From Pomacea canaliculata (taxonomy: Eukaryota; Mollusca; Gastropoda; Architaenioglossa; Ampullariidae): a stretch of DNA of 64,000 nucleotides. The notes beneath the pieces are model-generated. The model saw only the letters and a program-made list of their open reading frames with translations. It ran no database searches and had not been told where the DNA came from. Of the stretch, positions 29,602 through 62,670 are shown piece after piece; the first letter of the stretch is position 1; each line of letters starts with the position of its first letter. The DNA is taken from assembly GCF_003073045.1 (NCBI RefSeq), contig NC_037598.1, forward strand, positions 13,430,486-13,494,485, read 5' to 3'. The translations under genes were made by a program, and so were the position numbers.

Positions 29602-31382
29602 ATGTGGCGAATTGCATCTGTGTTCTGGCTTCTTGTAGCTTTTGGTGTCAATGATGCTCGAACTCCAAGAGGTAAGTAAAATAATCAATAATTAAAAGAA
29701 GAGATAATAAATGCATATATCATGATGTATTTAATTTGAAGGCTTTGTAATCCTAAGATTTAAACGATAGCCACATAAAATATATTTAGCAGATTTCCTA
29801 GTTAGGCGTACTTAGCAGACGGGCTAAGCTGGTCTGACACTTAGTGTGGACAACGACATATACATCTGCTGTGAAGGATCTGTTAACACGCCTGTGGGAC
29901 CCAGACAAGTTTTGACATTCGGTCAGCCCAACAACTCTTCAAAAGTTGAAAACAGAGGAGTTTCACTAAAGTCAGGTGCTTCTTCTTCAGGCTTAATAAG
30001 GTTTTGATCCGTTATCAATTAAAAAAGAACTGTAACAATAAATATTAATGTATAAGCACAAAACCGCATATGTCATTCATTGTGTATTTTCAAATTTCTT
30101 GATGCTCGCAAAAGAGGACGACGATGATGAATATATTGAATTTTCAAGTACTCGACCTTTTTCAATTTAATACCGATTGTTAACTTTGCAATTACTTTCC
30201 TATTTCTTGACCACACCTCACTGACGCCTAGATCACAAGAGCGGGAAAGCAAGAAATGATGTTTTGTTAACTGTTCACTAACTAGTATACTGGAACCTAT
30301 TCTTTTACATTCTTCTGTTGCCGACCACCATTTCAGAAACATTTGCGACAAGAAGCTATTAATAATAGACTTTACTTCCACCTTAATAATAGACTTTACT
30401 TCCCTTACTTTCATCTTCATTACTTCTAGCCCAGGGGTGGGCAATTAATTTTCCCAAGGGGCCGCATGAGAAACTGGTGTGGTTCTGGAGGGCCGGACTA
30501 ATATAGTTAACTCAGTTTTACCCAATACTGTATATATAGTATATATACTGGCGGGCGGGCCAGCGGGCGGGCTGGTCAGAGACAGGAGACGGCCCGCGGG
30601 CCGGCATTTGCCCAGGTCTATTCTAGTCATTTGTTTTCTTAGTCTGTGAACTACTATTAATATTGTCAAAATGAATTTGGTCAAGACCAAGCTTGATATT
30701 AAGGATTCTAGGACATGCGTTTCTCACATGTCCATGCTTTCTTTGTCAGCTTCAGGAACCTCCTAAACCACATTGCTACATCCACTTTTTGCTTTATTTC
30801 AAGATCAGCCCTTTTTAGCTCACTGTCATGTGGTAACTTAAATGGGGAAGGAACTATCGCCCGAATTAGTGTCTAGGGTGGCTTGTTGACAAGCATCACA
30901 TGATGCCCACAAGAAAGTCTTAGAGAGGTAATTTAAGAAATATTTTGAAATTACACTCTGCAAAACAAAACAAAAAAACAAACAAAATAAAACCAAACCA
31001 ACAAAAAAAGCAAAAAAATCTTGAAACTATGTCTCTTCCGTTAAACCCATTACATGCATATTTGTAGTATACTGTTGTTTTCACTGAAGCTTTTACACTA
31101 CCATGATTAAGTTCTGCTTTAGCTGTCTTGCTGCAGTGTTTCATTCCAAACAGTATTTGTAACTTTGCTGCGACGAAATCTTTGCAAACTACGCCTATAG
31201 ATAAGAAAGCAAAATTCGGTAAAAGTGTGTTTGTAGAGTTGATTGATTCTGGTCTGTGTATGTGTACTCTGTTAATGTTTAGTCGAATATACAACACATT
31301 CGGAATACTTTAGAGCTGCGAAATGATCGATATAATAATAGATGATGATGATGATGATGATGATGATGAGGATGATTGATGA

Positions 31383-31442
<60 letters not shown>

Positions 31443-33445
31443 TGATGATGTTGTCTTCTAGGAAGACCTTGGAGAATATCAATGAAAACAGCGGATGTAG
31501 ACCATGCCGGTACTGACGCCAGTGTCTACATCATCTTGATGGATTCTTAATGGCAGAGACAATCACCGCATATATACTTGGACAATGTATTTCTGAATGA
31601 CCATGAGCGAAATTCCGTAGACCACTTCAATAGATACGACAGTGTTAACCTCAGGGACGTATGCGCTATCACAATCTATCATGATAACACTGGCACTCAC
31701 CCTGGCTGGTTTCTCGAAAAGGTAAATAAACATTTTTGACACTAAACCCTTTCACAGCTTTTATGTAGTCATCATTCCCATATGTACTGAATTGTTCTCA
31801 TTTAAGATTCCAGTTCATTTATAAACATCCAGAAATTAATGTACTCAAACGGCTTAAAGAATGCTGTAGATGTCATTAAAACATCTTGAAAGTGAAGATA
31901 ATGGATAAGAGATAAAACAACAGTTAAACTGTTCCCTAGTGCAAACTATCAGAATGCAGGAAGAGTTCAAGATAAACAAATCCTCCCTTGACTAGTACCA
32001 GTTCAAGAACAGTATACTGATCATTGGGAGAAAACAGCTCAATAGACACAGAAACTGTCAACTCCTCCCTATCTTCATCGATGGCAAGAAAGTGAAAGTT
32101 TGTGTTGTTCTTCCTGTGTGCAATGTCGTCTGCGAACTGCAGATTGTGTTTGGGACTCTCGAGCGATTTACAGGGAGGAGATGTTTCTTAAAGTATATTC
32201 TACGACAAAATGCTAAACAGCACGGGAAAAAGGGTTGCCATTGACGGAAACCCACCGTTGTCTATAAGTTTGTTGTACAGAGCTCGTGGGGCTTTGTATT
32301 TTATTGTATAAATTATACAACAACCAACAAACTACAGTAAGAATGATCATGTGCGCACCTACAACATCACAGACACACACCACTGACACTTCATCTGAGG
32401 TTGAGCATCTGGACCGTGTTACAGTCGCCGGCTCTCTCACGAGCAACACACACACACGACGTCCGTACGCGTTCTTTCAACACAAAACAACGATTGGCTG
32501 AGGCTGTCCACGTGATGTTAATAAGTTGCTGGAATGGCTCAGGACTTACAGATTACAAAACATTTATGCATTAAAAAAGTGGCACCAGCTTCACTTACAG
32601 TTTCTTAGCGATATGAAGCCAACGGTACATCCATCCACACACTTCGTCTAGATGTAATCCTCGATCACAATTGCTTTAACACAATAGTCCTTACGGAAAG
32701 AAAAAAAACTTGGCTAGGCAAGGAATTTTTTTTGCATCTACACTCGCATTAACACTTAAACAACATCCTTCTGCTGTCATTTCCGCCATCATCACCGTCT
32801 GTTTCTTCTACATTTTTCGCAAGAGTTATCTCCCTTGTCTCTCTGACTTTCTAGCTCATTCTCTATTACATGTTATTTACCATGCAATTTACGAACAGCG
32901 AAGGGATTATATGGGTAAAGATAGGGGTAAAGATACGGTATCAGTTTAGATGTTTTAAATTAGTGGCTGCTGTACGTAAAATGCTTTCTTCACGTGCTGA
33001 CCACAAATTGTTGTTTTTATATTGTTGTCTAACTAGGTGTGGCTGAAGTCTGATGAAAGCCAAAACGATCGCGTATTTAATATCAGCCGCTGGGTCCCAA
33101 CAGAGCAAGAAGCGATGGAATCACACTATGTAGTAGAGCGCACGCCACCGTGTAGCGAAGGTAAGTGTGTCCTGTCTACTGATTGTCAGAGAAATGCCGC
33201 ACAAATCAAAACACATACATATAGTCCACCACAGGTCTTAGGAGTGGCCATTGCAACATTTTGTGCATATACTGGAGGTCTTTTTCATAAAGGAACAAAT
33301 GCACTATGGAGTCCTTCTCTCAGTTATTTCTAAACAGACCCCATATAAGATGAGTGGTTTGGTTTGTCTTCAACAACATGTGAAGTCATATCTGACACTT
33401 AACATACATGTATCTTTTGTCTCCACTACAGGTCCCCTGCCGTGA
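29602..33445 (+). CDS. PLAT gene A: secreted single-PLAT-domain protein, with an in-frame stop
   Basis: Four coding exons: 29602-29671, 31462-31721, 33037-33160 and 33432-33445 (stop TGA). Exon 1 encodes a signal peptide, MWRIASVFWLLVAFGVNDA. Exon 2 starts the PLAT/LH2 beta-sandwich: GTDASVYIIL, then DVCAITIYHDNTG and HPGWFLEK. Exon 3 finishes it with an RWV box and ends PPCSEG; exon 4 adds Pro-Leu-Pro. PLAT domains bind lipids, membranes or partner proteins, often with calcium; the ligand here is unknown. Relative to B, C and D, exon 2 is 3 bases longer, with one extra base and then two extra bases about 11 codons later. Between them the frame is shifted and a TAA appears at 31548-31550. The gene is a recent pseudogene, a null allele or carries a sequencing error. 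Its splice sites, 14-nt last exon and terminal noncoding exon are intact. Intron 1 carries a hAT MITE that B lacks. Confidence 0.75.
30432..30620 (+). mobile_element. hAT-type MITE in intron 1 of PLAT gene A
   Basis: A 189-bp element. It begins CAGGGGTGGGCAA and ends, on the complementary strand, with TAGACCTGGGCAA, the terminal inverted repeats of a hAT-family non-autonomous element. Flanks TTCTAGCC (30424-30431) and TTCTAGTC (30621-30628) form an 8-bp target duplication with one mismatch. The interior is GC-rich (GGCGGGCGGG and GGCCCGCGGGCC). The matching place in intron 1 of gene B (near 44735-44760) is an empty site, so the insertion happened after the A/B duplication. Confidence 0.85.
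31341..31449 (+). repeat. (GAT)n microsatellite abutting the exon 2 acceptor of PLAT gene A
   Basis: About 35 GAT units with a few interruptions end about a dozen bases before exon 2 at 31462. Only TTGTCTTCTAG separates repeat and exon. The orthologous place in the other three paralogues also carries a GAT-type repeat of a different length. Confidence 0.9.
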
Positions 33446-42580: not shown

Positions 42581-45254
42581 TCACGGTAGGCGACCTGTAG
42601 TGGGAGACAAAAGATAAATGTATGTCAAGTTATATACATTGTCAGATATGACTTCACATGTTGTTGAAGACAAACCAAACCATTCATCTTATATGGGGAC
42701 TGTTTAGAAATAACATAGAGAGAGACTCCCTAGTGCATTTGTTCCTTTAAAAAAAAGACCTCCAGGATATCCACGAAATGTTGCAATGGCCACTCCTAAG
42801 TCCTTTAGTGGACTATATGTATGTGTTTTGATTTGTGTGGCATTTCTCTGACAATCAGTAGACAGGATACACTTACCTTCGCTACACTCTGGTGTGCGCA
42901 TTATTATACGGTCTGCTCCCCTCTCTTCTGGTTCTGTTCCGACCCAGCGGTTGACACCAAAATCGCGAGTCCTTCGCATTGTACCACCCTTCATCCTTAC
43001 CTTAAGCTAAGTAGACAACAATATAAAAACAATAATTTGTGGTCGCACGTTAAGAAAGCATACTATGTTCAACAGCCACTAGTGTAAAACATCTAAGCTG
43101 ATACAGTATGTTAATTAACAACAAATGTACCCTACAAATCGTATGTTCCATAGTCAAAATTAATACCCACTGCTGCCATGGTGTTTTTAATCCAGCAGTT
43201 AGGAAAGCTTCGCGCATTTTGTCTGTACCTGACTATGTACTTACTAACCACAGAATTTGCATCATTCATCTCAGGTAAACGCTATTCCATGCAAAAGTGA
43301 CAGACACCTGAAATCGTTTGTGCCTTCTGCCGTCCAGATGCTCAACGTCAGATGAAGTGTCAGTGGTGTTGTAGGTGCGCACATGATAATTCGTAAAATA
43401 GTTTGTTTGTTGTATATTTTATACAATAAAATACAAAGCTCGACGAGCTCTGTACAACAAACTTGTAGACAACGGTGGGTTTCCGTCAATGGCAATCCTT
43501 TTTTTTTTTCACAGAGGAAGAACAACACAAACTTTCACTTTCTTGCCATCGATGAAGATAGGGAGGAGTTGACAGTTTCTGTGTCTATTTAGCTGTTTTC
43601 TCCCAACGATCAGTATACTGTTCTTCAACTGGTACTAGTCAAGGGAGGATTTGTTTATCTTGAACTCTTCCTGCCTTCTGATAGTTTGTACTAGGGAACA
43701 GTTTAAGTGTTGTTTTATCTCTTATTCATAATCTTCACTTTCAAGATGTTTTTATGACATCTACAGCATTCTTTAAGCCATTTGCGTACATTCATTTCTG
43801 AATGTTTATAAATGAACTGGAATCTTAAATGACAACAATTCAGTACATATGAGAATGATCACTACCTGAAAGCTGTATAAGGGTTAGTATCAAAAATCTT
43901 TATTTACCGTTTCGAGATACCAGCCAGGGGATAAGCCACCGTTATCGTGAAAGATTCTGATACCGCATACTTCACTGAAGTTAATAAGGTCGTCTACGAC
44001 GAAGTGGTCTAGGGCACCTTCTTGAAAGTCGTTCAAATGAAAATTGTCTAATTCTAAAGGCCGGGACTGTAGGCCATTGTCGTTATACAAGACGATGAAC
44101 ACACGGGCGTCAGTAGCGGCGTGCTCTTTCAGCGGTGTGTATGTCCATATCTGCCAGCGTGTTCCTAAAAGAAATTGTTATTATCATCATCGTCGTCGTC
44201 ATCATCATCATTAATATTATTCTATCGATCATTTAGATGCTTTTAAGTAGGCCGAATATGTCGTATTTTCGGATAAACAGTGGCAGACACATGCTTCCAC
44301 CATTTCTTTTTTGGCAAAGTGATTTCGAAGTATGTCTTTCTTGTGGGCATCATGTGATACTTGTCAACAAGCCACCCTAGACACTAATTGGAGCGATTGT
44401 TACTTCCCCATTTAAGTTATCCTAGGACAGTGAGCTAAAAAGAAATGATCTTGAAATAAAGCGAGAAAAACATTGATTGAAACAGGATCTTGTAAATTCT
44501 ACGTCTGACACCTAGTATTTTGTCTAAACAGCTAAGCTACAGACGACAACTGTGTAGCACCAGTGTCATAATGTCAACCAGTATTCAAGTGGATGTAGCA
44601 ATGTGGTTTAGGAGATGCCTGAAGCTGACAAAGAAAGCATGGACATGTGAGAAACACTTGTGTCCTAGAATCTTTGATATTAGCTGGTCTTGACAAAATT
44701 TATTTTGACAATATTAATAGTGGTACACAGACTAGGAAAACAAATGGCTAGAATTAATGCAGATAAAACTGAGCTGAATATAATATAAGATAATTATCAT
44801 CGTCCTCCTCTTTGCAAGCATCAAACAATTTTAATATTAAAAATGTATGACATATGCGGCCGTGTGCTTAGACATTTATATTTATTCTTACATTTTTTTA
44901 ATTGATAACGGATCAAAACCTTATTAACCCTGAAGAAGAAGCACCTGACTTTAGTAAAACTCTTCTTTTTTTAATGTTTTGAAGAGTTCGTGGGCAGATG
45001 TACAGGCTGTTGCCCACACTAAGTATCAGACAAGGTTAGGTTCATTTAAACAAGAAGGATATCTCGTACATATATTTTATGTGGCTGGCGTTTAAATCTT
45101 AGGATTAAAACTCCTTCAAATTAGAATACATCATGCTATATGCATTTATTATCTCTTATTATAATTATTGCTTATTTTACTTACCGATTGACCTTCTAGC
45201 ATCATTGACACCCAAACCTACAATAAGCCAGAACAGAGATGCAATTCGCCACAT
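42581..45254 (-). CDS. PLAT gene B: secreted single-PLAT-domain protein
   Basis: Minus-strand exons 45185-45254, 43908-44164, 42877-43006 and 42581-42594 (stop TGA) give an open 156-residue protein. Exon 1 encodes a signal peptide starting MWRIASLFWLIVGLGVNDA. The PLAT domain runs over exons 2 and 3: ATDARVFIVL, then a DFQEG loop, EVCGIRIFHDNGG, SPGWYLET, LKVRM and NRWV. The end is PECSEGRLP. The mature part has exactly two cysteines, in VCGI and PECS, at the same places as in the paralogues; a disulfide is possible. Exon 3 is 6 bases longer than in the others and starts CTTAAG instead of GTG. Introns are closely alike those of gene A, which it faces, yet the PLAT residues differ greatly. A lipid- or partner-binding extracellular role is inferred from the domain only. 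Confidence 0.85.
44175..44221 (-). repeat. GAT/GAC microsatellite before the exon 2 acceptor of PLAT gene B
   Basis: Short interrupted run (GATGATGATGACGACGACG in sense) ending about 10-20 bases before exon 2, at the same position as the long repeat in gene A. Confidence 0.8.
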
Positions 45255-48538: not shown

Positions 48539-50428
48539 TCATGGTAGGGGACCTGTAGTGGGAGACAAAAGATACATGTATGTCAAGTGATACATTGTCA
48601 GATATGACTTCACATGCTGTTGAACACAAACCAAACCACTCATCTTAAATGGGGTCTGTTTACAAATAACTGATAGAAATACTCCCTAGTGTATATTTTC
48701 TTTTAAGAAAAAGACCTCCAGGATATGCACGAAATGTTGCAATGCCCATTCCTAAGACCTGTGGTGGACTATATGTATGTGTTTTGATTTGTGTGGCATT
48801 TCTCTGACAATCAGTAGATAGGACCTACTTACCGTCTCTACACGGTGGCGTGCGCTGTATTACAAAGTTGACATTGCTCTCTTCTTCTTGTGTTGGGACC
48901 CAGTCGTTGACAATAAACTTGCGTGGTACTGTCATTTCCTCAGATTTCACCTCCACCTAGTTAGACAGCAATATAAAATCAACAATTTGTGGTCAGCACA
49001 TTTAGAAGGAATATTACTTACAGCAGCCACTAATTTAAAACATCGAAACATCTATTTATACAATAAAATACAAAACTCAACGACCTCTGTACAAAAAATT
49101 GTAGACAACGGTAGTTTACAGTCAATGGAAGTCAATTTTTCACGTTCTGTTTAGAATCTTGTTGTAGAATATACTTTCAGAAACATCTCCTCCCTCTAAA
49201 TCGCTCGAGAGTCCCAAACACAATCTGCAGCTCGCAGACGACATTGCACAGAGGAAGAACAACACTAACTTGCACTTTAGCGATTTTATCTTAAACTCTT
49301 TCTGTGTTCTGATAGTTTGCACTAGGAAACAGTTTAACTGTTGTTTTATCTCTTATCCATAATCTTCACTTTCAAGACGTTTTTACGACATCTACAGCAT
49401 TCTTTAAGCCATTTGCGTACATTCATTTCTGGATGTTTATAAATGAACTGGAATCTTAAATGAAAACAATTCAGTACATATGGGAATGATGACTACTTAA
49501 TATCTGTAAAAGGGTTTAGTGTCAAAAATGTTTATTTACCCATCGCAGATACCAGCCAGGGGAATCGCCACTGTTATCATGATAGATTCTGATAGAGCAT
49601 ACTTCCTTGAAGTCACCCCAGTGTCGGAAGCGGAAGGTGTTAGTATCACCTCGCTCAAAGTCGTCCTTCCAAAGTTCGTCTAATCGTAAAGGCTTGGAGT
49701 TTTGTCCATTAGGGTCAATCAAGATGATGAACACATCGGCGTTAGTATCAGCGTGCTCTTTATCCCCTGTTTTTGTAGTTATAGTCCAACGTATTCCTAG
49801 AAGACATTATTAATATTGTTATCATCATCATCATTATTATTATTATTATATATTATTATATCGATCATTTCGCTGCTTTAAAGTAGGCCGAATGTGTTGT
49901 ATATTCGACTAAACATTAACAGAGCACACAAAGAAGATGTGGGACATATCGCGGCCTTGCGCTAATACATTTATACTTATTCTTAAAGGTCTTTTTAATT
50001 TTACCAGACTGATAGCAGATCAAAACCTTATTAATCCGGAAGAAGAAGAACCTGCCTCCTCTTTTATAAACTTATGAAGAGATCGTAGCCTGACAGAATG
50101 TCAAAACATGTCTGGGTCCCACAGTCGTGTTAACAGTTCCTTCACAGCAGATGTATATGTCGTTGTCCACACTAAGTATCAGACCAGCTTAGCCCGTCTG
50201 CTACAGACGACTTCTTTTAAACAAGGAGGATATCTGGTACATATATTTTATGTGGCTGGCGTTTAAATCTTAGGATCACAACTCCTTCAAATTAGACTAC
50301 ACCATGTTATATGTATTTATTATCACTTATTTTAATTATTGATTATTTTACTTACCTTCTCCGTTTAAGTGAACATCATTGACACCAAAAGCTACAAGAA
50401 GCCAGAACAAAGATGCAATTTTCCACAT
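48539..50428 (-). CDS. PLAT gene C: secreted single-PLAT-domain protein
   Basis: Minus-strand exons 50356-50428, 49540-49796, 48833-48956 and 48539-48552 (stop TGA) give an open 155-residue protein. The signal peptide starts MWKIASLFWLLVAFGVND. The PLAT domain reads TKTGDKEHADTNADVFIIL, DDFERGDTNTF, EVCSIRIYHDNSG, SPGWYLRW, then VEVKS and DWVPTQ in exon 3, ending PPCRDGPLP. All borders are GT-AG and all phases agree. It pairs most closely with gene D: introns and flanks are about 95% alike by eye, but the PLAT residues differ at about 36 codons. The two conserved mature cysteines are present. Confidence 0.87.
49818..49856 (-). repeat. GAT/AAT microsatellite before the exon 2 acceptor of PLAT gene C
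   Basis: Short ATC/ATT run on the plus strand, ending about 20 bases upstream of exon 2 of gene C in sense. It is the shortest of the four alleles at this position. Confidence 0.8.
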
Positions 50429-50678
50429 GGTAACGGCTTGAATCAAGAAGCTCCAACTGAAACGAATGTGTTTGCATTTATCTAACACAGACGACGTACA
50501 AACATCTGTGACGACAGTTTCAAGCTTTCGCAGTCAAGCGATACCATCGATTCAAATCTCACATGCGCGTGGAAACACAGACAGACACACAAACACATCC
50601 ACCGCTAGGACCAGGCTTGTCACTGTTCTTTGCTGTCATCTCTCATGGTCCTGTCAGTTTGGGAGGCGTGTGTCCGAA
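50429..50678 (-). promoter_or_regulatory. Conserved upstream block and core promoter of PLAT gene C
   Basis: Same block as in A, B and D. TATA-like GATAAATG lies at 50475-50482 and the initiator-like TCAGTT near 50455-50460. One base differs from A and B just after the TATA-like word. Confidence 0.45.

Positions 50679-50679
<1 letters not shown>

Positions 50680-50744
<65 letters not shown>
50680..50744. repeat. (ATA)n microsatellite upstream of PLAT gene C
   Basis: About 21 ATA units placed between the conserved promoter block and the shared distal block. The matching place in gene D carries a longer ATA tract (61641-61754). Confidence 0.95.
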
Positions 50745-50745
<1 letters not shown>

Positions 50746-50749
50746 CGAA

Positions 50750-51330
50750 ATTTGTAGAGCGCATACTTACGCTTTAAGGAGCATGCTCTTAGAAGTGTGA
50801 ACCTGCAATAATTCAACACACTGACATCAAGCGTGCATTTCTTAAGAAGTGGCTTCACCAGCACATTGTTAAAGAAAGATAGGAAAACACCTGATCACAA
50901 GGTCACATTAACAATGTTTATGATGGCAGGAAGTAAAATATGTAAGCACTCAACAAGAAGAATTGTGGGTAATTGGGTTTAACTGGCAAGTTGTTTGCTT
51001 GTCTTTCAGCAAAATTGCCTTTATATCAGCACCAGAGACTGGTTAAAATTCAGTCAGAGAGCATCCCAGAAGAATATCACAAGAGATGATGGCAGGATGA
51101 GCGAGTGTCCGAAGTCTTGCTAGCAAACTAATCGGGACATACCGACGTTTGTGCATAATAACATCAACATGAGCAGGAACTTCATTATACTTAAGCAGAA
51201 TCAGTATTCAGTGAGTCAATATCTTCTGACTGATACAATACTGATAGTTAAGATCGAACACCGCACTCAGTGTTAAAACATTCAGCGTTTGTCACATGCT
51301 TGTTTTATAAGTTAAACACTATGACAGAAA
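50750..51330 (-). repeat. Distal upstream block of gene C, duplicated at 61755-62340
   Basis: About 580 bases (for example TTTGTAGAGCGCATACTT, GGAGCATGCTCTTAGAAG, CACAAGGTCACATT) match 61755-62340 with few changes, so the C/D duplication reached well beyond the genes. The start, TTTGTAGAGCGCATA next to an ATA tract, has the look of an interspersed repeat end. The same motif occurs in inverse form near 29310-29350, upstream of gene A. Confidence 0.85.
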
Positions 51331-51766
51331 TATTTGATTCTTATGTGATGTTCATGTAAAGAAGCTTAGACGTTGCCACACGTGGTAGTCATGTTTCTCT
51401 ACCCAAACAAGTGAGATTTAAATGTGGCGGCCATTCAATTGTCGTTTTGTGTGGTTTATGTTTACAGAAATTCAGCACCAGACTACATGTAGATGATCCA
51501 GTACAGTTAGGGTTGTCCTACATAGCAGACAGTAGTCAGGTCGAGACAGGAAGTACATTAAGGTCACTGACGTGTCCTGGTTCCAACACAGTCTAACGAC
51601 ACAATATGTGACATCACACTACCCACTGGTTAATTTAGCATCATGGCAGACAAGCTTCTTACTCTAATTTGAGCAAGTCTAAATTAACGGACAAGTTTTC
51701 ATACAAGTCATCTTTTTTCAAAAATTCTATTACTATATAGAGATTAAAAAATTCTTTGATGGGGCC

Positions 51767-52885
51767 ATGGCGGAATTAAATCGAGCTTCAAGCGGCTGGC
51801 ATCACCATCAAAGACCGCACGCCGACGTCGTTGACACATCCAACATCATCGCCACAGAACATCCCGCTACTTTCCGAGAGGAACTTATTTACGGAGTACT
51901 CGTGTCCCTGAACAAGCTCCAGTCAAAAACTTGGGGTAAGGTGATTTACATGGAGAGGGGGAGACAAGTCACCAGCACCTACCTGAGTTCACGCTCGGTC
52001 GTGATCGACGGTTCCTTTACCTCAGTGGACGGAGACAGTGCTGAACGAGCCACGGTTGCCAAGTTTGGCTTAAGACAGTTCCAGAATCGCCTGAGAGACA
52101 GAGACACTGCATATTTCCGCGACCAGATTCGCGAGGGCGTGCGTCTAACGGGTGACTCTGATGGCAACATTCTGGCGTGTCGTCTGACGGAGCTGACTGT
52201 CACGGTCAAAGGTCTGCAACAGCCGCATTCCTTCTGTCTCTCTGCTGACGTCCTCCTCCAAAAGGGCAATCTCCCCTTTGATGAGACAATCAAGATATTT
52301 GACATGAAAGAATTCCGAAGCACAATCGCACTGGAACTGAAGCGAGGAGAGTTTTCCAAGGAGAGACTGCGTCGCGCGTGCTTGGTGGGCCTCAGCTTTG
52401 GTCAAGATGACGCAGACGACCTCGAGACGCCATGTTGGATGTACATCATTAGCATCAGCGCCCTTAAGGAGCTTGAATCACCAGAAGTAAAACGCCAGGC
52501 ACAGCAGCAGGCCGCCCTGGCGCAAATGAAGTCAGAGGACAAATACAAAGAAAGTGCAGCCAAGCAACGGACGGACAGATCCAGGTGGGCGAAGTCTGAC
52601 CAGAGAGACCACCTGGCCAACAAAGAAGCGGGCATGCCTCAACTGAGAGAGCAGCCGCGGGCCAAAAAACAGTTGGTTGGAGAAAGTATCGGTTATTACA
52701 GCTGGGAAATTCAACCTAGCAAAGAGCGGACTACGATGGAAGAATTACAGAGGCCTGCTGCTCCCAAAATAGGGAGGTCAGGGGAGCGAGTGCGGCAGTG
52801 GGCCAAGCTGGAGACCGCCATCAAGATCAGTCACATCAAAGCTGCCAAAGATGCCTCTAACGACCAGGTGTCAGGACAAGACTGA
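51767..52885 (+). CDS. Smad-like MH2-domain protein without MH1, intronless
   Basis: Open frame of 372 codons starting at an ATG in strong context (GGGGCCATGG). Residues about 56-236 read as a divergent Smad MH2 domain: W56 followed by YMERG (61-65), VVIDG (78-82), FGLRQFQNR (100-108), IREGVRL (121-127), GNILACRL (133-140), KIFDMKEF (176-183), RRACLVGLSFG (202-212) and TPCWMYI (221-227). The last three match the Smad boxes KIFD..F, TIR.SFVKGWG and TPCWIEI in order and spacing. There is no DNA-binding MH1 domain before it and no Ser-X-Ser phospho-tail after it; residues 240-372 are charged, Lys/Arg/Gln-rich and probably disordered. In Smads the MH2 domain mediates receptor, Smad4 and cofactor contacts, so an MH2-only protein could bind partners without DNA, as inhibitory Smads partly do. 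That function is inference. The lack of stops implies recent origin or selection. Confidence 0.8.
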   Translation: MAELNRASSGWHHHQRPHADVVDTSNIIATEHPATFREELIYGVLVSLNKLQSKTWGKVIYMERGRQVTSTYLSSRSVVIDGSFTSVDGDSAERATVAKFGLRQFQNRLRDRDTAYFRDQIREGVRLTGDSDGNILACRLTELTVTVKGLQQPHSFCLSADVLLQKGNLPFDETIKIFDMKEFRSTIALELKRGEFSKERLRRACLVGLSFGQDDADDLETPCWMYIISISALKELESPEVKRQAQQQAALAQMKSEDKYKESAAKQRTDRSRWAKSDQRDHLANKEAGMPQLREQPRAKKQLVGESIGYYSWEIQPSKERTTMEELQRPAAPKIGRSGERVRQWAKLETAIKISHIKAAKDASNDQVSGQD

Positions 52886-53517
52886 ATAACGGCCTTCAGA
52901 CGACGACCCTCCATACTACACAGCTCGAGTGCACTTGTTGTCTTCTAGTGTTCCAGTGGCCTGTCTCTTCCAAGAGGGTTTCTCAGTGCTTCTTTTGTCC
53001 GGAAGAAGAACAGTTCTTTGAAATGGAATCTGTCTTTGTAGATGCGTTGGCAGTGAATCTGTTTTGTTTTCATGAACATGAACAACTGAACCATCAAGGT
53101 TGCTGCGAACTGTGCTTTTCGAGTAAGAATGCAGAAAAGGGGTAGAGAAAATTGGAAATGTAAATAGTTCCTGTCGACTGAGATGAACATGATAATAATA
53201 ATGTCGCATTTCTGACGAGAGATTTTGCGCGATGAAAAAACTGTCGTCTGAAGCCACGAGCTTGAAGATTGAAAATGCCTGTCAGGTGTATCATGTGTTG
53301 TCTGTTGAGAGTAATGTGTGTTTTGAAAGTTTCAGTGGTGATAACTGTGACGACTGGGTAGTTTCAAATGTCTTACATGTGAAGTGCTGTCCAAAATTGA
53401 CATTCAGTCAGCGATGATAGTAAAGGAGCAAAAACGAGCTTTAAAATTTAATACAAGAAAATGTGATTAAAATAATATTTGACGACAATATATTTGAATC
53501 ATTCTTTTGAGGGACCC

Positions 53518-53550
53518 AATAAAAGCATGAAAATTTGAAAAAAAAAAAAA
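53518..53550 (+). promoter_or_regulatory. Polyadenylation signal and retroposed A tail of the MH2 gene
   Basis: AATAAA at 53518-53523, then 14 bases, then 13 consecutive A. The spacing is normal for a cleavage site, and the A run is the copied poly(A) tail of the source mRNA. Confidence 0.85.
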
Positions 53551-53564
53551 ATTAAAAAATTCTT

Positions 53565-54045
53565 GTGTAGTCGTAAAGATTACTGCACTTCCGTTTAGTA
53601 CACATCTGTAACAGGTTTTTGTCGGAACTTACTTGAGTTCTCATCAACATCCGATGCATTTCGTAAGAGCCGGATGGTGTTGTGAGTCTCACCATTGCAA
53701 GTGTCGCCGCGTCCTGCCAGACATGTTGTCCACAGTCTCCAACAAGGAAGGTCAGACACAGTCCACCATTCGGAGCTCACAACAGGCTGCGACAACATCA
53801 ACATGTTCAAGCTGTGCTTGTATGCAAACATTATTCTTGTGTGTGTCGGCATGCAGGTGCATATGAGTGAGTAGAGTATTTTTTTCATTTTATGTGTTTC
53901 TCGCAATTTTATAGATATATATATATTTTTTTGTTCATTAGTAGTTTTGTTATCAAAGTTTTCGCATACATCACTCGTATCAATAGAACAAAATTATAAT
54001 AATTTATGGGAATGTGTTTCTGGATGCTACATCATGGCTACACTG
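53565..54045. other. No supported gene
   Basis: Short gap between the MH2 retrocopy and the 3' end of the I-group LINE. It contains an AT run near 53920 and no coding signal. Confidence 0.5.
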
Positions 54046-54049
54046 CACC

Positions 54050-56868
54050 AACTTCTTCTTCTTCTTCTTCTCGATCACTCTAAATGGACACGCCTGCCTC
54101 CTGCACAAATGATGCTGTGCGCCGCAGGTCCTCCAGGCTGCCGTGTAGCTTCCTCGACACTGGCGTCCCATCAGTCCAGATGCGGTGCCTGAGGTCTTCG
54201 TGCATGGGACATTCTTGCAGTAGATGTGCTGTTGTCTGGCACGGGCACTGGCCTGTCTGGCCGATCCGGAGCTTGGTGTATAGGTGGTGATTGAGACGGT
54301 TGTGGCCTGTCCTCAGCCTGAAAATAATAACCTTCTCAGCCCTTGTAAGCAGGTAGTATGGGTCGTTCCGGTTGAAACGTGGGTGCTGTTGCAGCCACTT
54401 GTTGTGCTGTTTGGCCTTGATGATGGTTTTGATTTCACTGAAGGTGGTGGACCTGTCTTGCTGCTCTTTTGTGGATCCTTCCTTGGCAAGAGTGTCTGCG
54501 GCTTCGTTGCCAAATACACCACAGTGGGAGGGAATCCACTGTAGGACGACTGTGTAGTCTCCGCATAAGGAGGAGAGAGCAGTGGTCAGGTCGTTCAGTT
54601 TCTTGTCTCTGGCAGTCTGTAAGGCCTGCAGAACAGACAGTGCATCTATAAAGAAGACGACGTTGTTGCAGGTGTCTGGGCTGTTCTCAACGTGGGTGGC
54701 ACCGGTCTGAATGGCAACTGCTTCAGCCTTAAAGTTGGTGGAGTAGAGGCCGGTTGCGAGGGAAAGGCGGTCTTCTCTTCCTCCTGGGTACCGGATGTAG
54801 ATTCCGGCGCCACCATTCTTCACGGCTTGTTCAGCTGACCCGTCAGTGAACACATGAGTCCACTGATCTTGAGGGAAGTTGTTGTAAATATACTCCAGAG
54901 TACAGGACTTCTTCATAGCGCCGTCTTGGGAGTCTTTCTTGCCGACACCAGGGATGCTGCAGTGAATCAGGGGGAAAGCAGTTTCATTCCATGGTGGGTT
55001 TGTCGGCACAGGGGGATCTCTCTGGGTCGTGTTCCAGGATATCTTGGTGTTTCTCGTTCAAGGATCTCGCCTGGTGGATGAAACTTCCCCTTTTAACCTT
55101 CCCTTCGTCGGCTGCTCCAGCCTGTTTCTCATGGGGTGATTTGGAAGTCTCTTTGAACTTGCGGCTTGGACGAGCATGTTTGTGTCACGTCGGGTCCGCA
55201 AGTGGTTCCACCCTGTGATTGTCCTCCAGTTCCTGTATGGCGTAGACCTCATGGCTCCAGTGATGAGTCTGCTGCTTGGTTCTGAACTTGCTGACTTCTC
55301 AAAGTTGGATTTTGCTGCATGTGCCCCATGCTGTCATGCCATACTCTAGGGCTGGTCTGACCCTTCCGGTGTACAGCTTCCTTGAGGATTCTGTCATCCG
55401 CGCCCCCAGCTCGTGCCAGCCAACTTCTTCATAATAAGTGCGAAGTCGCACCTTGGCTCTGGCTTCGACTTCTTCGTCTGAGGCTTCCAAAGTAAGTCTC
55501 TTTCGAAGGTTACTCCAAGTAGGTAATCAGGGTTGTTTCCTCCAGTGCGAGAATCTGTCCATCGAACTTCAGAGAGGCCTTCTGTTCCCATGGACAGACT
55601 AAAAATAGTGTAGGTGTCTTTTTGGGGTTGACTTTGACAAGCACCTCTTCGTCCAGTCCTGCACGAGGACATTAAGCGCACTCTTGGAGTCGGTAGTTGG
55701 CAGTTGTCAGGTGTTCTTCTGTGCACCAAGGACCAGGTCACTCTGCATAGATGGCTCCTTGGACATTTCGGGGGAGGTCCTTGATGATGTCGTTTATGAA
55801 GACAAGGAACAGGGTAGGACTGAGTCTCCCCCTTGAGGACTCCTTCTCTCCAGCGTCTTCTTTTCGGCTGTATGTTCCGCCGACGTGGACTCTGGCCTTC
55901 CTATTGTTCAGGTATTGAAGAGATCCACTGGTACATGCAGCCGGATACGCCCACACTTCTGGAGTTTCAACCTCAGTCCATCTTTCCAGACCTTGTCGAA
56001 GGCCTTATTTCCATGTCTATCCACACCGTCAGCGTGTGCTTTCTTGTCCTGGAATCCATTCTTCGATTTCTGGACAATGTATGTAACCTGGTCTTCAGTT
56101 GAGCGATGTTGTCTTGAGGCCTGCTTGTTTCTGGTGTAAAGATGTTCTTTTCCAAGTGCCATGATAATCTGGTGTTGATGAGGCGCTCCATTAACTTGCC
56201 CACGCAACTGGTGAGGCTTATGGGTCTGTAACTGTCCACCTTCGCTCGGTCTTTGCCTTTCTTGTGGACGGGCACCATGTCAGCCCTCTCGCCAGATTTG
56301 TGGGACGTGGCCGCTGTTCCAGCTGTTGTTGAGAGGTCGAGGAGTTTGGTCTTGGCTCGTGGCCCAGGTGTTGCAGCATTTCATTGGTGACCTTATCTGG
56401 ACCAGGGATTTCTTCTGACTTAGGGTCTTGACTGCTTCTTCAAACTCTCTCATGTTGAATGGTTTGTTCATGTAGTCTTCCTGGTGTTTTCGCTGGCTAA
56501 ATTCTCTTCTTTCTTCATGAACTTGCTGTTTCTTTTCTTCTGGTACTGTGATGTTGCTGACCTCTTCATAGCTGTCGATGATTGCGTTTGCTGCTTTTCT
56601 ACCTGTTAGCATATCTTGTGCTTGTTGTATGACGATCGGTGCACGTCTAGTATCTTCATCATTCATCGCCCTTGCCAGTTTCCATAATTTGTTTCCTTCT
56701 CTGTCTAGGTTCAGTTCTTCTGTCTTTTCTCCCCAGCTCTTTCTTGCAGCTTCGTTGCAGGCTTTTCTGTATTTGGCGCTTGATTCTTTCGGTGCTATGT
56801 TGTTTTCTATTGTGGGGTCATTTTCAGCCTTTTCCCTGGTCTTGGAGACTTCATCTTCTAGTTCTAGA
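54050..56868 (-). mobile_element. I-group LINE with RNase H, 5'-truncated, (GAA)n tail
   Basis: On the minus strand, pieces of reverse transcriptase run from about 56660 to 55300. They include NNSWNSGHVPQIWREG, VPVHKKGKDRAKVDSYRPIS, LTSCVGKLMERLIN, LSPTLFLVFINDIIKDLP and a YADD box near 55745 that is disrupted by one extra base. An RNase H domain and a C-terminal zinc knuckle follow. The 3' end is a GAA repeat at 54050-54072. RNase H plus a short simple-repeat tail is the pattern of the I superfamily (I/Nimb-like). The 5' part, including the endonuclease, is absent, and homology stops near 56868. The reverse transcriptase part is broken into several frames, so the copy is dead. Confidence 0.88.
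54080..55009 (-). CDS. RNase H and zinc-knuckle part of the I-group LINE
   Basis: An intact 309-codon stretch of the LINE polyprotein. RNase H catalytic residues are all present: Asp in FTDGSAEQ, Glu in KAEAVAI, Asp in FIDALSVLQAL and the last Asp in GNEAADTLAKEG, preceded by the WIPSHCGV box. RNase H degrades RNA in the RNA-DNA hybrid during reverse transcription. The C-terminus has CPCQTTAHLLQEC, the Cys-X-Cys...His-X4-Cys knuckle usual at the end of I- and Jockey-type LINE proteins. Its ATG is internal to the original polyprotein and not a real start. Confidence 0.85.
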   Translation of the reverse strand: MPTNPPWNETAFPLIHCSIPGVGKKDSQDGAMKKSCTLEYIYNNFPQDQWTHVFTDGSAEQAVKNGGAGIYIRYPGGREDRLSLATGLYSTNFKAEAVAIQTGATHVENSPDTCNNVVFFIDALSVLQALQTARDKKLNDLTTALSSLCGDYTVVLQWIPSHCGVFGNEAADTLAKEGSTKEQQDRSTTFSEIKTIIKAKQHNKWLQQHPRFNRNDPYYLLTRAEKVIIFRLRTGHNRLNHHLYTKLRIGQTGQCPCQTTAHLLQECPMHEDLRHRIWTDGTPVSRKLHGSLEDLRRTASFVQEAGVSI

Positions 56869-56879
56869 CATCAACAATA

Positions 56880-58540
56880 ACATCAGCAATGGCAGAAGTG
56901 AGCACACACACACCCACACACACACACGCCCGCATCAAAAGGACAATACATCAGTTTCCATGACTACATTAACAACGCTGCAATATTTCTAACAACAATA
57001 ATGCTTTGTTTCTAATGTTAAAAGAAATAATATTTGTAGTTATTTGTAGATTGCTGCATGATTACTAGCTACACAGATGACAGCATCACGTAGTGGCCGC
57101 AGTTTCTAGTCTAGGATGTCTCCATGTATTAACAGGCTTCACACGTGTTCTTGCATCAGTGGGCAGACATCAAGTTTGTTTCCCGCCCACAGATGTGTGT
57201 TTGTGATCTCTAGTCCACGTTGTTTGTAGTTACAGTCGTCATGCTTCACGTGCACGTCACTCACACACTCAGGGTAAGAGATGTGATGTCACCACTTCCC
57301 AGTTCCGTCCTCTGTACGACATCGATGTCAGCAATCAGCTCCACCAGGTCCTGTCAGTAACTGATAACACAGAGCCCAGACTGACATTGCTGCTCAAAAA
57401 AATAAATAAATAAATAAAAAAAAAATTCGAAGCAGGCTGTCGTATTAGAAAACAATTAATCTTCACACTTCACGGTTCACTGCCTTTAGTGCCTCCCTAT
57501 ACCCGCCTCTAAATACCCCGTTAATACTCTTTAATGGGCGGTATATGATGTATGAAGGAAAGGTTGACCAGATTCTGATCTGAGAGACCAAGTGGTGGAT
57601 GTAGCAGTGACGTGTACGCGTCCTTCACCTTGGTGTGAAAGAGGTCAAGCATCTTGCCCCCCACTTGTTGCGCATGTAACGTGTTGTTGGTATTTCGGTA
57701 GAGATTTCATCAACCTGTAGTAGTTAAATCGCCAGTTATAAGGTTGAAAGTATCTGGAAAGGTTCAAGGTGCTGTATGTTAGACTGAATCACATCACACT
57801 ACTAGAACGAGACTGGTGTATACAAAGCTTCCGGCTTAGTAACATTCATTGTTTAGGCTCTCGTCTTTTAATGGTCTTCAACATCATTTTCAGACCTTCA
57901 TGCATTGATGATATGAATAATGAATAAAAGGAGAGACAGAGCAAGCCTACCAAGTTGAATGCACTTCGAGACTTATTCCTCTACTTTAATTAAACTTACT
58001 TATTCAGTAGCTGTTATTTCTAGATTTCACCGTAAAAAATTATTGTGGTTGCTTCAGACACTTAAAAATTGAGTACCGGAACAAAGTTTTGTCTTGCTTG
58101 TGTGTGACTGACAAATGTTCTGTCGATGTCAGGATGAGACATCTATTGTCATTCTTTGGAGAACAAAGGTTTAAACCCCGTCACCACTTGAATTATTTCC
58201 ACATGTCACACTCATTTATTCCAAATCACGATGTAATACAAAGACCAGTTCAAATACAACGCGAAGATAGAAGTCACTTAAACGATAACAAAAATGACAA
58301 AACTTTTTACTATTTCTGATTCTTTAAGCCCGCATGTGGCAAAGTAAACTCGCACTGGTTTTACTGCACATTCAGATTAAAATCGCCTTTCTTTTTTGCT
58401 GTAGGAAAGGCAAGTTCACTTGTGATTAGATAAAACAACCACTAGCACTGCAAACTTTGACTGTTATCTGGAATTCGACATTCGCACATAGCCCGTAGGT
58501 AACAAGAATCATGTACAGGGACCGAAATGTTCCACATATC
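56880..58540. other. No supported gene; carries scattered duplicated pieces
   Basis: Holds a CA-rich tract near 56905-56930, an A/AAAT-rich tract near 57400-57425, the repeat of 40211-40290 at 57798-57860 and the repeat of 28352-28463 at 58180-58283. No exon-like sequence is seen. Confidence 0.55.
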
Positions 58541-59447
58541 AAAATAATGGTTTCACCCCGTGTAAAGTCAGCAACAGGGTTTTACAAACTCTTTTGTTTG
58601 CTTCTTTGTCTTTTTAAATTTGTTTTGTTTTGTTGGTTTTTTTCTGTAGGTATATATATATATTTTTTTGGTTTTGTTTTTGTTTTTTGCCGTGGCTGTT
58701 TATGCTTTGCCGTCTGATCGTTTTAAGTTTTACAGTAAAAACTTGTTTTCACACTCCACTGAAAAACTCGTAAGGCAAAATTCATGCATGAACAGACGTT
58801 CTTTATTATGACATGCCAGAACGTTCTACAAATAAAAGCAATTTCAGCAAGTATTTGAGTCCTGGATGCCTTCAAAGTTTAGACGGCGAAAAAAAATTTC
58901 AGTTTGCAGTACTGTAGGTTGACCTCAGGAAATCTGCTCCAAAGCCACGTTACTTCTCTCCATCCTTTGAACACAATATAATTATATATAATCACATCAC
59001 ACACGAAACAAACAGACAATCGATTAAAATAGCTCAGAAAGCGATTTTTAACAATCTTTTAGCAACATTTTTATAATACCGAGCGGAAGACTGAAAATGG
59101 CATCAATGTTTACTTCAAGATAAGGACAAGCGCAAACACACACATGAACACCATTCTCCATCTCTCACTCACACACACATACACGCAGATATCTACAGGC
59201 GTTCAGCTTAAAATGAAATGCTATTTTTCATTTCTTCTACAAAGTCAACTTTACTTTCGATCAGATATTACAAGTTGTAGTACTCTAACCGCTAACGCTT
59301 TTCATGCAATTCGACTTTCAAACATTTAGAACAATCTTGCTCCACAGCTCTTTGTGTAATTAGAATGTCTAGAGGTGTCCTAGATGATAAAGTAATGATT
59401 GGAAGTGTACCTTGTCATCCGCTGTCTACCATTGCCACGTTGATCCA

Positions 59448-60785
59448 TCACGGCAGAGGACCTGTAGTAGGAGACAAAAGATACATGTATGTCAAATGAT
59501 ACATTGTCAGATATGACTTCACATGCTGTAGATGACAAACCAAACCACTCATCTTATATGGGATCTGTGTAGAAATCACTGAGAGAAATACTCCCTAGTG
59601 CATTTTTTCCTAGTAAAACCATTTTTTGAAACTTCATTCAAGAGCTAAATAGATGATAAAAAGAATCCGAGCTATCTTGTAAAACAAAAAAACTTTGTTT
59701 ACAACCGATGCCTGGCCTTAATGTTTGTGTTTTGATTTGCGTGGCATTTCTCTGACAATCAGTAGACAGGATACACTTACCGGCGCTACACGGTGGAGTG
59801 CGCTGTATTACAAAGTTGACATTCCTCTCTTCTTCTTGTGTTGGGACCCAGTCGTTGACAATAAACTTGCGATAATTTTTCATCATAACACGTTTCACCT
59901 TCACCTAGTTAGACAACAATATAAAAACAACAATTTGTGGTCAGCACTTTTAGAATACATTACTTACAGCAGCCACTAATTTAAAACATCTAAACACCTA
60001 TTTATACAATAATATACAAAGCTCAACGACCTATGTATAACAAACTTGTAGACAACGGTGGGTTTCCGTCAATGGCAATCCTTTTTTTTCCCTTGGTGTT
60101 CAGCATCTTGTCGTAGAATATACTTTGAGAAACATCTCCCTGTAAATCGCTCGAGAGTCCCAAACACAATCTGCAGCTCGCAGACGACATTGCACAAAGG
60201 AAGAACAACACAAACTTGCACTTTCGCAATTTTGTTTTGAACTCTTTCTGCATTCTGATAGTTTGCTCTAGGGAACAGTTTAACTGTTGTTTTATTTCTT
60301 ATCCATAATCTTCACTTTCAAGATGTTTTATGACATCTACAGCATTCTTTAAGCCATTTGCGTACATTCATTTCTGGATGTTTATAAATGAACTGGAATC
60401 TTAAATGAGAACAACTCAGTACATATGAGTATGATGACTACTTAAAAGCTGCATAAGGGTTTAGTGTCAAAAATGTTTATTTACCCATCGCAGATACCAG
60501 CCAGGGGAATAGCCACTGTTATCGTGATAGATTCTGATTTCGCAGACGTCCTTGAATGTACCCAGTCTTAGGAGGGAGAATCTGTTAGTATCACCTCGCT
60601 CAAAGTCGTTCACCGCAATTACGTCTAATTCTACAGGCACGGAGTTTTGTCCATTAGCGTCAATCACGATGATGTACACACGGGCGTTAGTATCAGCGTG
60701 CTCTTTATCCCCTGTTTTTGTAATTACAGTCCAATCATTTCCTAGAAGACATTATTAATATTGTTATCATCATCATCATCATCAT

Positions 60786-60818
<33 letters not shown>

Positions 60819-61397
60819 TATATATTATTATATCGATCGTTTCGCTGCTCTAAAGTAGGCCGAATGTGTTGTATATTCGACTAAACATTAACAGAGCACA
60901 CAAAGAAGATGTTGGACATATCGCGGCCTTCCGCTAATACATTTATATTTATTCTTAAAGGTCTTTTTAATTTTACCACACTGATAGCAGATCAAAACCT
61001 TATTAATCCTAAAGAAGAAGCACCTGCCTCCTCTTTTATAAACTTATGAAGAGTTTGTAGGCTGACAGAATGTCAAAACATATCTGGGTCCCACAGGCGT
61101 GTTAACAGTTCCTTCACAGCAGATGTATATGTCGTTGTCCACACTAAGTGTCAGACCAGCTTAGCCAGTCTGCTACAGACGACTTCTTTTAAACAAGGAG
61201 GATACCTGGTACATATATTTTATGTGGCTGGCGTTTAAATCTTAGGATTACAACTCCTTAAAATTAGAATACACCATGTTATATGTATGTATTATCACTT
61301 ATTTTAATTATTGATTATTTTACCTACCTTCTCTCCATCTAGCATCATTGACACCCAAACCTACAAGAAGCCAGAACACAGATGCAATTTTCCACAT
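59448..61397 (-). CDS. PLAT gene D: secreted single-PLAT-domain protein
   Basis: Minus-strand exons 61328-61397, 60485-60741, 59781-59904 and 59448-59461 (stop TGA) give an open 154-residue protein. The signal peptide starts MWKIASVFWLLVGLGVNDA. The PLAT domain reads TKTGDKEHADTNARVYIIV, NDFERGDTNRF, DVCEIRIYHDNSG, SPGWYLRW, then VKVKR and DWVPTQ, ending PPCSAGPLP. Segments identical to gene C (the TGDKEHADTNA strand, DFERGDTN loop, IRIYHDNSG and PGWYLRW) alternate with strongly changed ones. The first intron donor is GTAGGT rather than GTAAGT. Two conserved mature cysteines are present. The stable core suggests a maintained fold; the variable parts may contact a changing partner (inference). 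Confidence 0.87.
60761..60828 (-). repeat. (GAT)n microsatellite before the exon 2 acceptor of PLAT gene D
   Basis: About 18-20 ATC units on the plus strand, interrupted twice, ending about 20 bases upstream of exon 2 in sense. Confidence 0.9.
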
Positions 61398-62436: not shown

Positions 62437-62512
62437 CTGCTTGTTCTTTGCTGTCATCTCTCATCATCCAATCGGTTTGGGAGGCGTGTGTCCTTTAATA
62501 ATAATAATAATG
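62437..62512 (-). repeat. Orphan piece of the PLAT-gene upstream block
   Basis: Contains GTTCTTTGCTGTCATCTCTC, then CCAATCGGTTTGGGAGGCGT and a short ATA run, the distal end of the promoter block of genes B, C and D. No PLAT exon accompanies it within this window. It marks a fifth partial copy or a local tandem duplication. Confidence 0.75.
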
Positions 62513-62670
62513 TTAAAACATTTATGTGATGAATGAGGCCACTTCCTGTGGATTTGGAACAGTTATACTTTGTGTGCTTGCGTTATATTACTGATGTACT
62601 TAGGTACAGCGTTTTGTAATGGTTCACGAGGGAACTGTCTTTTTTGCCTTTCTCTAGCAAAACTGATGTA

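What the first reader, a model, noticed from the sequence alone, without database searches (positions are those of the whole stretch)
48539..61397. Accelerated protein evolution in the PLAT exons: about 36 replacements against 3 synonymous changes between genes C and D
Aligning exons 2 and 3 of genes C and D codon by codon, I count about 26 replaced codons and 2 synonymous differences in exon 2 (86 codons). Exon 3 (41 codons) adds about 10 replaced and 1 synonymous. Almost no silent change accompanies a 30% amino-acid divergence, while introns, 3' parts and promoter blocks are about 95% identical by eye. Most changes are radical (Asp to Arg, Arg to Glu, Trp to Ala, His to Arg). They cluster in a few segments, leaving TGDKEHADTNA, DFERGDTN, IRIYHDNSG and PGWYLRW untouched. 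This is the signature of strong diversifying selection, known from immune-recognition and fertilisation proteins; I know of no such report for a stand-alone PLAT protein. A and B show the same contrast in exon 3.
Basis: partly seen in the sequence, partly recalled or inferred. Interest (0 to 1): 0.95.

Follow-up and report, generated by a model that had tools for sequence, protein, structure and literature searches.

The report
Fast-diversifying secreted snail PLAT gene family
A snail genome, probably that of the golden apple snail, carries a large family of small secreted-looking PLAT-domain proteins in which amino-acid-changing sites evolve about two to three times faster than the genes' own introns, as expected if selection keeps favouring new protein surfaces; what they bind is unknown.

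Summary
In detail: C and D differ by exactly 36 replaced and 3 silent codons. As a rate this is dN/dS 1.96, not 12, since 18 of 39 changed codons carry two or three changes. Diversifying selection remains the best reading. Codon positions 1+2 differ at 2.75-3.1 times the rate of introns 1+2 in 5 of 6 C/D/E/F pairs (E-F: 1.1); fourfold-silent sites (8.8%) are near the intron level (6.7%). Site models favour a class with dN/dS 4-5 even with multi-nucleotide changes allowed (9 genes p = 1e-6; CDEF p = 0.003, 0 of 120 null simulations as high); whole-protein dN/dS is then not significantly above 1 in this cluster. No distant donor for D's exons was found. The pattern is wider: PLAT matches 84 places, 54 of them on three contigs; 24 genes on C7 have overall dN/dS 2.3-2.8. 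Between clades introns and 3' parts are more alike than silent exon sites, suggesting flank conversion. Function is inferred only: secreted recognition or target-binding proteins. Probably Pomacea canaliculata.

The parts
50356..50428 (-). Gene C exon 1: signal peptide (MWKIASLFWLLVAFGVND..) and variable start of the mature protein
   Evidence: ATG, open frame, GGTAAGT donor
49540..49796 (-). Gene C exon 2: most of the PLAT domain, hypervariable
   Evidence: PF01477 match, 7.4e-19 for exons 2+3; splice sites
48833..48956 (-). Gene C exon 3: end of the PLAT domain, variable codons around 91-97 and 113-115
48539..48552 (-). Gene C exon 4: last residues GPLP and stop
61328..61397 (-). Gene D exon 1: signal peptide
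60485..60741 (-). Gene D exon 2: PLAT, hypervariable
   Evidence: PF01477 1.3e-15 for exons 2+3; genome matches
59781..59904 (-). Gene D exon 3
59448..59461 (-). Gene D exon 4: GPLP and stop
45185..45254 (-). Gene B exon 1: signal peptide
43908..44164 (-). Gene B exon 2: PLAT
42877..43000 (-). Gene B exon 3
42581..42594 (-). Gene B exon 4: GRLP and stop
29602..29671 (+). Gene A exon 1: signal peptide
31462..31721 (+). Gene A exon 2: PLAT, with an in-frame TAA at 31548-31550, so A is pseudogene-like; left out of all codon-model fits
33037..33160 (+). Gene A exon 3
33432..33445 (+). Gene A exon 4: GPLP and stop

Best explanation
Genes A-D belong to a tandemly expanded family of small, probably secreted proteins: a conserved signal peptide, one PLAT domain of about 125 residues with two conserved cysteines, and a short conserved tail. 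Shown here: after duplication the PLAT exons kept amino-acid changes faster than silent sites and introns changed, at a limited set of positions (alternate residues such as codons 5/7 and 54/56/58/60, and the runs 42-44 and 91-97), while other positions stayed fixed. Also shown: between clades, introns and 3' blocks are more alike than silent exon sites. Inferred: gene conversion (or constraint) keeps those flanks alike while selection keeps the exons apart; the fast positions lie on the protein surface and touch a partner that itself evolves (microbial, gamete or prey surface). I think a role in recognition or defence is most likely and reproduction second; this ranking is by analogy, and expression could not be tested.
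For: 36 replaced / 3 silent codons, C vs D. Positions 1+2 vs introns 1+2: 2.75-3.11 fold in 5 of 6 CDEF pairs, Fisher p 1.4e-9 to 4.0e-8. Fourfold-silent 8.8%, intron-2 start 6.7%, positions 1+2 16.7%. M2a over M1a: CDEF 2dlnL 37.4, with multi-nucleotide changes 11.8, 0 of 120 null simulations as high; 9 genes 76.2 / 27.6, exon 2 alone 68.2 / 19.0, exon 3 alone 21.8 / 12.9. Other groups, exon 2 only: 24 genes on C7, M0 dN/dS 2.78 / 2.28, site test 181 / 121; 8 genes of C9b 57 / 12; 4 genes of C13 14 / 14. Positions 1+2 exceed flanking introns in 233 of 276 C7 pairs, 27 of 28 C9b, 6 of 6 C13 (not independent). One family: similar signal-peptide frames (MW...FGV) lie upstream of the PLAT exon in the three genes checked, on C13 (E 4e-5), at C9 12.9 Mb (0.016) and on C7 (0.15, judged by eye). 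Fast sites recur: 8 of the 12 comparable C9 sites above 0.9 are also above 0.9 in C7, permutation p 0.0007.
Against: E-F shows no excess; P2/P3/P4 exon 2 is nearly unchanged; several very close pairs in other clusters are not significant against their flanks. With multi-nucleotide changes allowed, whole-protein dN/dS exceeds 1 significantly only in C7. Tree-free codon bootstrap: ratio 1.57 (1.03-2.45) CDEF, 1.59 (1.12-2.18) C7, but intervals include 1 for the 9-gene set (0.96-1.91), C9b (0.83-1.72) and C13 (0.71-3.76). Recombination can inflate site tests and region trees partly conflict; it was not modelled. Rank correlation of site posteriors C9 vs C7 is weak (0.16, p 0.16) and shared constraint alone gives some overlap. 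One genome only: no sister species, polymorphism, expression or structure model.
Confidence: 0.7

Rival explanations
1. Segment or exon exchange: PLAT exons or segments were copied in from other paralogues, as proposed for segment switching in snake venom genes, so the difference is old divergence imported, not new change.
For: Region trees partly disagree; exon-1 tails (DVHL in P1, C, E; DAR in A, B, D) are distributed unlike the exon 2+3 tree; one C window (codons 46-60) matches E better than D, 0.89 vs 0.76.
Against: No donor for D: exon 2 best matches C/E/F at 84-85%. The 45-base window scan of the 10 cluster genes flagged one window each in B and C and none in the other 8 (threshold 0.12). 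Imported old exons would bring silent changes, but C-D has 2 of 36 fourfold and 1 of 55 other silent sites changed.
Confidence: 0.1
2. Relaxed constraint: decaying duplicates drift at the neutral rate and the excess is an artefact of multi-nucleotide mutation, recombination or small counts.
For: Gene A has a stop codon; 18 of 39 changed codons are multi-hit; mean dN/dS with multi-nucleotide changes is 1.25-1.46 and not significant in this cluster.
Against: Drift cannot push exons above the intron rate (2.75-3.11 fold in 5 of 6 pairs) while silent sites stay near introns. Site tests survive the multi-nucleotide model and simulation. C7 stays at 2.28, p 8e-7. Exons 2 and 3 are open in the nine other copies of the cluster and the 39 exon-2 stretches read elsewhere show no stop.
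Confidence: 0.12
3. The contrast is mainly homogenisation of introns and flanks by gene conversion, making exons look fast without selection.
For: Between CDEF and B/A/P1 (12 pairs), intron-2 starts differ by 7.8% and 3' parts by 10.2% while fourfold-silent exon sites differ by 23.9%.
Against: It explains the between-clade intron contrast but not positions 1+2 exceeding fourfold-silent sites inside the same exons (36.0% vs 23.9% between clades, 16.7% vs 8.8% within CDEF, 23.0% vs 8.1% in C7).
Confidence: 0.15
4. Biased gene conversion towards G/C or a local mutation hotspot raises exon change.
For: Polarised C/D changes: 23 A/T to G/C, 12 G/C to A/T, 12 other, on 223 A/T and 158 G/C sites.
Against: The skew is small (10.3% vs 7.6% per site) and a hotspot or GC bias would raise silent sites too, which stay low.
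Confidence: 0.03

Closest known systems
Conotoxin superfamilies of cone snails
   Same: Gastropod multigene families with conserved signal peptide, hypervariable mature peptide, positive selection in part of the genes; a passage in PMC10561478 says mature-toxin exons diverge about three times more than flanking non-coding DNA (passages seen). Here positions 1+2 run at 2.75-3.11 times the introns in five pairs.
   Different: Short peptides of a venom duct; here a PLAT domain with two conserved cysteines, no venom context, expression unknown.
Snake venom proteins with accelerated change / segment switching (ASSET)
   Same: Fast coding change aimed at surface residues (PMC2711939, passages seen). 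That venom exons outpace introns is recalled from older phospholipase A2 work, not read here.
   Different: ASSET replaces whole segments by unrelated ones; no segment with a donor was found for D here.
PLAT/LH2 domains of lipoxygenases, polycystin-1 and LOXHD1
   Same: Domain family PF01477; best solved-structure matches by sequence are polycystin-1, allene oxide synthase-lipoxygenase and 11R-/5-lipoxygenase.
   Different: There the domain is part of a large protein (LOXHD1 recalled); here it stands alone behind a signal peptide and is hypervariable.
Abalone lysin and other fast-evolving reproductive proteins (recalled, no call)
   Same: Secreted molluscan proteins under diversifying selection.
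   Different: Unrelated fold; no reproductive expression shown here.

Membership tests
PLAT/LH2 domain (PF01477) | Profile match above the curated cut-off | tested here: met
   C 69.0 bits, D 58.6 bits, cut-off 23
Lipoxygenase / polycystin / LOXHD1 | Catalytic or membrane domain, or many PLAT repeats, in the same protein | tested here: not met
   Seven spliced copies of 149-157 aa with one PLAT domain and a tail ending in a stop; splicing inferred from sequence only
Secreted protein | N-terminal signal peptide | tested here: inconclusive
   Hydrophobic N-terminus MW(K/R)(I/N)AS(V/L)FWL(L/I)V.. in 9 of 10 cluster copies, none found for P4; judged by eye, no signal-peptide predictor was run
Family under diversifying selection | Site class with dN/dS above 1 favoured by likelihood ratio | tested here: met
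   null simulation for CDEF only
Family under diversifying selection | Mean dN/dS above 1 over the whole gene | tested here: inconclusive
   Without multi-nucleotide changes significant in 4 of 5 sets (CDEF, 9 genes, C7, C9b; not C13); with them only in C7
ASSET-type segment switching | Variable segments matching another paralogue | tested here: not met
   (window scan within the 10 cluster genes; genome-wide for D only)
Conotoxin-like venom family | Venom-gland expression, toxin activity | not testable with these tools
   no expression data held; two invariant Cys in seven aligned copies
Fertilisation or immune protein | Expression in gonad, albumen gland or haemocytes; partner binding | not testable with these tools
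   no expression data held

The most novel reading that the evidence does not exclude
Apple snails use the PLAT fold as a germline-diversified recognition repertoire: dozens of secreted single-PLAT proteins in several chromosomal clusters, with overlapping surface positions varied repeatedly by selection and flanks kept alike by conversion, working like an invertebrate immune or gamete-recognition family on a scaffold not known for it.
Probability: 0.35. Interest if true: 0.82.

Novelty: new member of a known kind. Interest (0 to 1): 0.62.

Why it matters
Protein families with dN/dS above 1 usually mark a molecular arms race. PLAT domains are known as lipid- or partner-binding modules of larger proteins; one that stands alone, in dozens of copies, with a subset of its positions under strong diversifying selection in what is probably an invasive pest snail points to an unrecognised class of recognition or target-binding proteins. 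It gives a short, testable list: where are they expressed, and what do the variable positions bind?

Tried and rejected
Swapped-in exons: no donor found. GC-biased conversion: weak skew only. Drift: spoken against by exon change above the intron rate in five of six close pairs. Literature, all by search listing: 'PLAT domain' with Pomacea, with gastropod, and with positive selection plus mollus gave 0 papers each; 'lipoxygenase homology domain-containing' with snail gave 0; 'lipoxygenase homology domain' with mollus gave one pearl-oyster growth paper; PLAT with venom, with positive selection plus tandem duplication, and with diversifying selection gave 2, 4 and 3 papers (one on phospholipase D toxin genes, the rest on plants). 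In the Pila/Pomacea genome paper (PMC13336756), AmpuBase (PMC5839033) and the P. canaliculata genome paper (PMC6129957) the word lipoxygenase does not occur; 'PLAT' was looked for in the first two only, and the places shown (three of four in the first) are words such as platform or platae.

Limits of the counts: codons 1-2 of E and codon 1 of F in the alignment are probably partly intronic by my splice reading; C and D are not touched. C7: 28 PLAT hits (my count of the list), 25 fetched, 24 analysed (L064 left out, it resembles the C9 type). C9b: 9 fetched, 8 analysed (L051 left out, shorter by deletions). C13: 5 fetched, 4 analysed (L055 left out, its start did not align). Outside the window's cluster only exon 2 was analysed, except for the look for signal peptides. 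P4 has no exon 1 or exon 4 found. The intron 3 alignment of C-D is unstable (20/214, 46/281), so it was not used as a clock. L024 and L025 were fetched and not used.
Full report
What is there. The window lies at G000:C9:13430486-13494485 of a 440,159,624-base genome in 24 contigs. The total fits the Pomacea canaliculata assembly (PMC6129957, passages seen: 440,071,717 bases in 14 chromosomes), so I take it to be that snail; this is inference from size and recall. The paper's stated shortest scaffold of 27.2 Mb fits contig C9 (27.16 Mb) but not C13 (23.6 Mb). Genes A (+ strand), B, C and D (- strand) each have four coding exons: signal peptide, PLAT part 1, PLAT part 2, and a last 14-base exon. 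Pfam PLAT matches C at 7.4e-19 and D at 1.3e-15. The same cluster, from 13.32 to 13.52 Mb, holds six more copies outside the window (P1-P4, E, F) and a truncated one near P1.

The count. This is not yet a rate: there are 297 nonsynonymous and 84 synonymous sites, 12 codons differ at two and 6 at three positions, and path averaging gives dN 0.211, dS 0.107, ratio 1.96. Other pairs of the group: C-E 1.62, C-F 1.90, D-E 1.55, D-F 1.39, E-F 0.79. The changes are not generally radical: BLOSUM62 below 0 in 24 of 36 (C-D), 19 of 42 (C-E), 16 of 36 (D-E), against 54% for random one-base replacements.

Introns as a clock. Per-region differences for C-D: 5' block 4.1%, intron 1 4.7%, exon 2 17.1%, intron 2 9.0%, exon 3 15.4%, exon 4 plus 3' part 13.1%. 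Positions 1+2 against introns 1+2: C-D 48/254 vs 78/1135, ratio 2.75 (block bootstrap 1.45-4.90); the other four wide pairs 2.78-3.11, intervals above 1; E-F 1.12 (0.33-2.55). Silent sites are near the introns: over the six pairs fourfold sites 18/204, other silent sites 10/347, intron-2 start 94/1408, positions 1+2 254/1524. So exons do not seem to mutate more; they keep more amino-acid changes.

Codon models. I wrote GY94-type site models with optional double and triple changes. CDEF: M2a over M1a 37.4, with multi-nucleotide changes 11.8 (p 0.0027), class with dN/dS 5.3 at 39% of codons. Under the fitted null, 120 simulations gave a maximum of 9.6. Nine genes (A left out): 76.2 and 27.6 (p 1e-6); exon 2 alone 19.0 and exon 3 alone 12.9 with multi-nucleotide changes. 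Results against: mean dN/dS with multi-nucleotide changes is 1.46 (CDEF, p 0.29) and 1.25 (nine genes, p 0.28); a tree-free codon bootstrap gives 1.57 (1.03-2.45) for CDEF and 1.36 (0.96-1.91) for nine genes. Thus the evidence is for a subset of codons, not for the protein as a whole.

A wider family. PLAT matches 84 places in the genome, of which 28 lie on C7, 21 on C9 and 5 on C13 (my count of the list; a lower bound by the tool's own note); 16 on C3 and 9 on C10 lie mostly close together and may be multi-PLAT genes. Exon 2 of 39 more copies was fetched. C7 (24 analysed): M0 dN/dS 2.78, or 2.28 with multi-nucleotide changes (p 8e-7 against 1), site test 181 and 121; fourfold-silent 8.1%, positions 1+2 23.0% over 276 non-independent pairs. 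One pair, L028-L038, has 27 replaced and 0 silent codons with flanking intron 3.2% different. Positions 1+2 exceed flanking introns in 233 of 276 C7 pairs, 27 of 28 C9b pairs and 6 of 6 C13 pairs, but several very close pairs are not significant. C9b (8): site test 57 and 12; C13 (4): 14 and 14. With multi-nucleotide changes the mean dN/dS is 0.86 in C9b and 1.89 (p 0.09) in C13. Bootstrap ratios: C7 1.59 (1.12-2.18), C9b 1.21 (0.83-1.72), C13 1.49 (0.71-3.76). Signal-peptide frames of the same type (MW...FGV) sit upstream in the three genes that I looked at, on C13 (E 4e-5), at C9 12.9 Mb (0.016) and on C7 (0.15), so I take this to be one family.

Where the changes are. Fourteen codons have posterior above 0.95. 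They alternate with fixed residues (5, 7; 54, 56, 58, 60), as in beta strands with one side exposed, or stand close together (43-44; 91, 93, 97). Residues fixed in the nine genes include the two cysteines (codons 67 and 125) and D46, F47, F55, D74, W82; D46 and D74 vary in the other clusters. Eight of the 12 comparable sites above 0.9 in this cluster are also above 0.9 in C7 (2.7 expected, p 0.0007), although the overall rank correlation is weak (0.16, p 0.16), and shared structural constraint alone would give some overlap; with C9b 3 of 12 (p 0.28) and with C13 5 of 12 (p 0.005). No structure model could be made.

Flanks. In the 14 pairs listed the start of intron 2 differs by 2-9%, except P2 against A or C (29%), and the 3' part by 2-13%, whereas exons differ by 22-38% between clades. 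Fourfold-silent sites between CDEF and B/A/P1 differ by 24%, more than those introns at 7.8%. Region trees partly conflict: the exon data reject the four other region trees by AU (by SH not the intron-1 tree, 0.13); the 5' data reject the exon tree (0.002; P1's 5' block is unalignable there) and the intron-1 data narrowly (0.041); the intron-2 and 3' data do not (0.088, 0.50). I infer gene conversion, or constraint, in the flanks. Intron-exon contrasts between clades must therefore not be read as selection alone; within CDEF silent sites and introns agree and the inference is clean.

Mechanism and function. Shown: duplication, protein-level acceleration at a subset of sites, conserved frame and N-terminus. 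Inferred: secretion, exposed face, changing partner. Among roles I rank recognition/defence first and reproduction second, by analogy only. The genome and egg-protein papers that I looked into do not mention lipoxygenase-type proteins in their main text.

Comparison. The nearest analogue in mode is the conotoxin gene family, where mature exons diverge about threefold more than flanking DNA (PMC10561478, passages), and venom proteins with fast surface change (PMC2711939, passages). By fold it belongs to PLAT/LH2, best sequence matches among solved structures being polycystin-1 and lipoxygenase PLAT domains, without their other domains.

Verdict. New member of a known kind of evolving family, on a scaffold for which eight searches of the held library listed no earlier report.

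Noticed in passing
51767-52885 (+), A-run near 53541: Intronless 372-aa open frame with an MH2 (SMAD-type) domain (5.2e-21) between genes C and D, followed by AATAAA and an A-run, with the string ATTAAAAAATTCTT on both sides: looks like a retrocopy with an open frame.
   Followed up: partly
31548-31550: In-frame TAA in exon 2 of gene A, the only one of the ten cluster copies with a stop inside exons 2-3.
   Followed up: yes
62442-62516: Fourth copy of the upstream block that lies 5' of B, C and D, here 5' of the D copy itself, without its own PLAT gene next to it.
   Followed up: no
54080-55009 (-): 309-aa open frame that looks like the RNase H end of a non-LTR retrotransposon inside the C-D spacer (judged by eye).
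   Followed up: no
L009:9161-9232 and L010:735-854: Truncated PLAT copy: the end of an exon 2 and an exon 3 on the + strand, starting beside exon 1 of P1, which runs the other way.
   Followed up: no
L010 (P2), L016/L015-L016 area (P3), L017 (P4): Recent duplicates: exon 2 almost unchanged (0-1 replaced codons) while exon 3 carries 5-12 replaced and 0-2 silent codons, so the two PLAT exons can evolve at different speed.
   Followed up: partly
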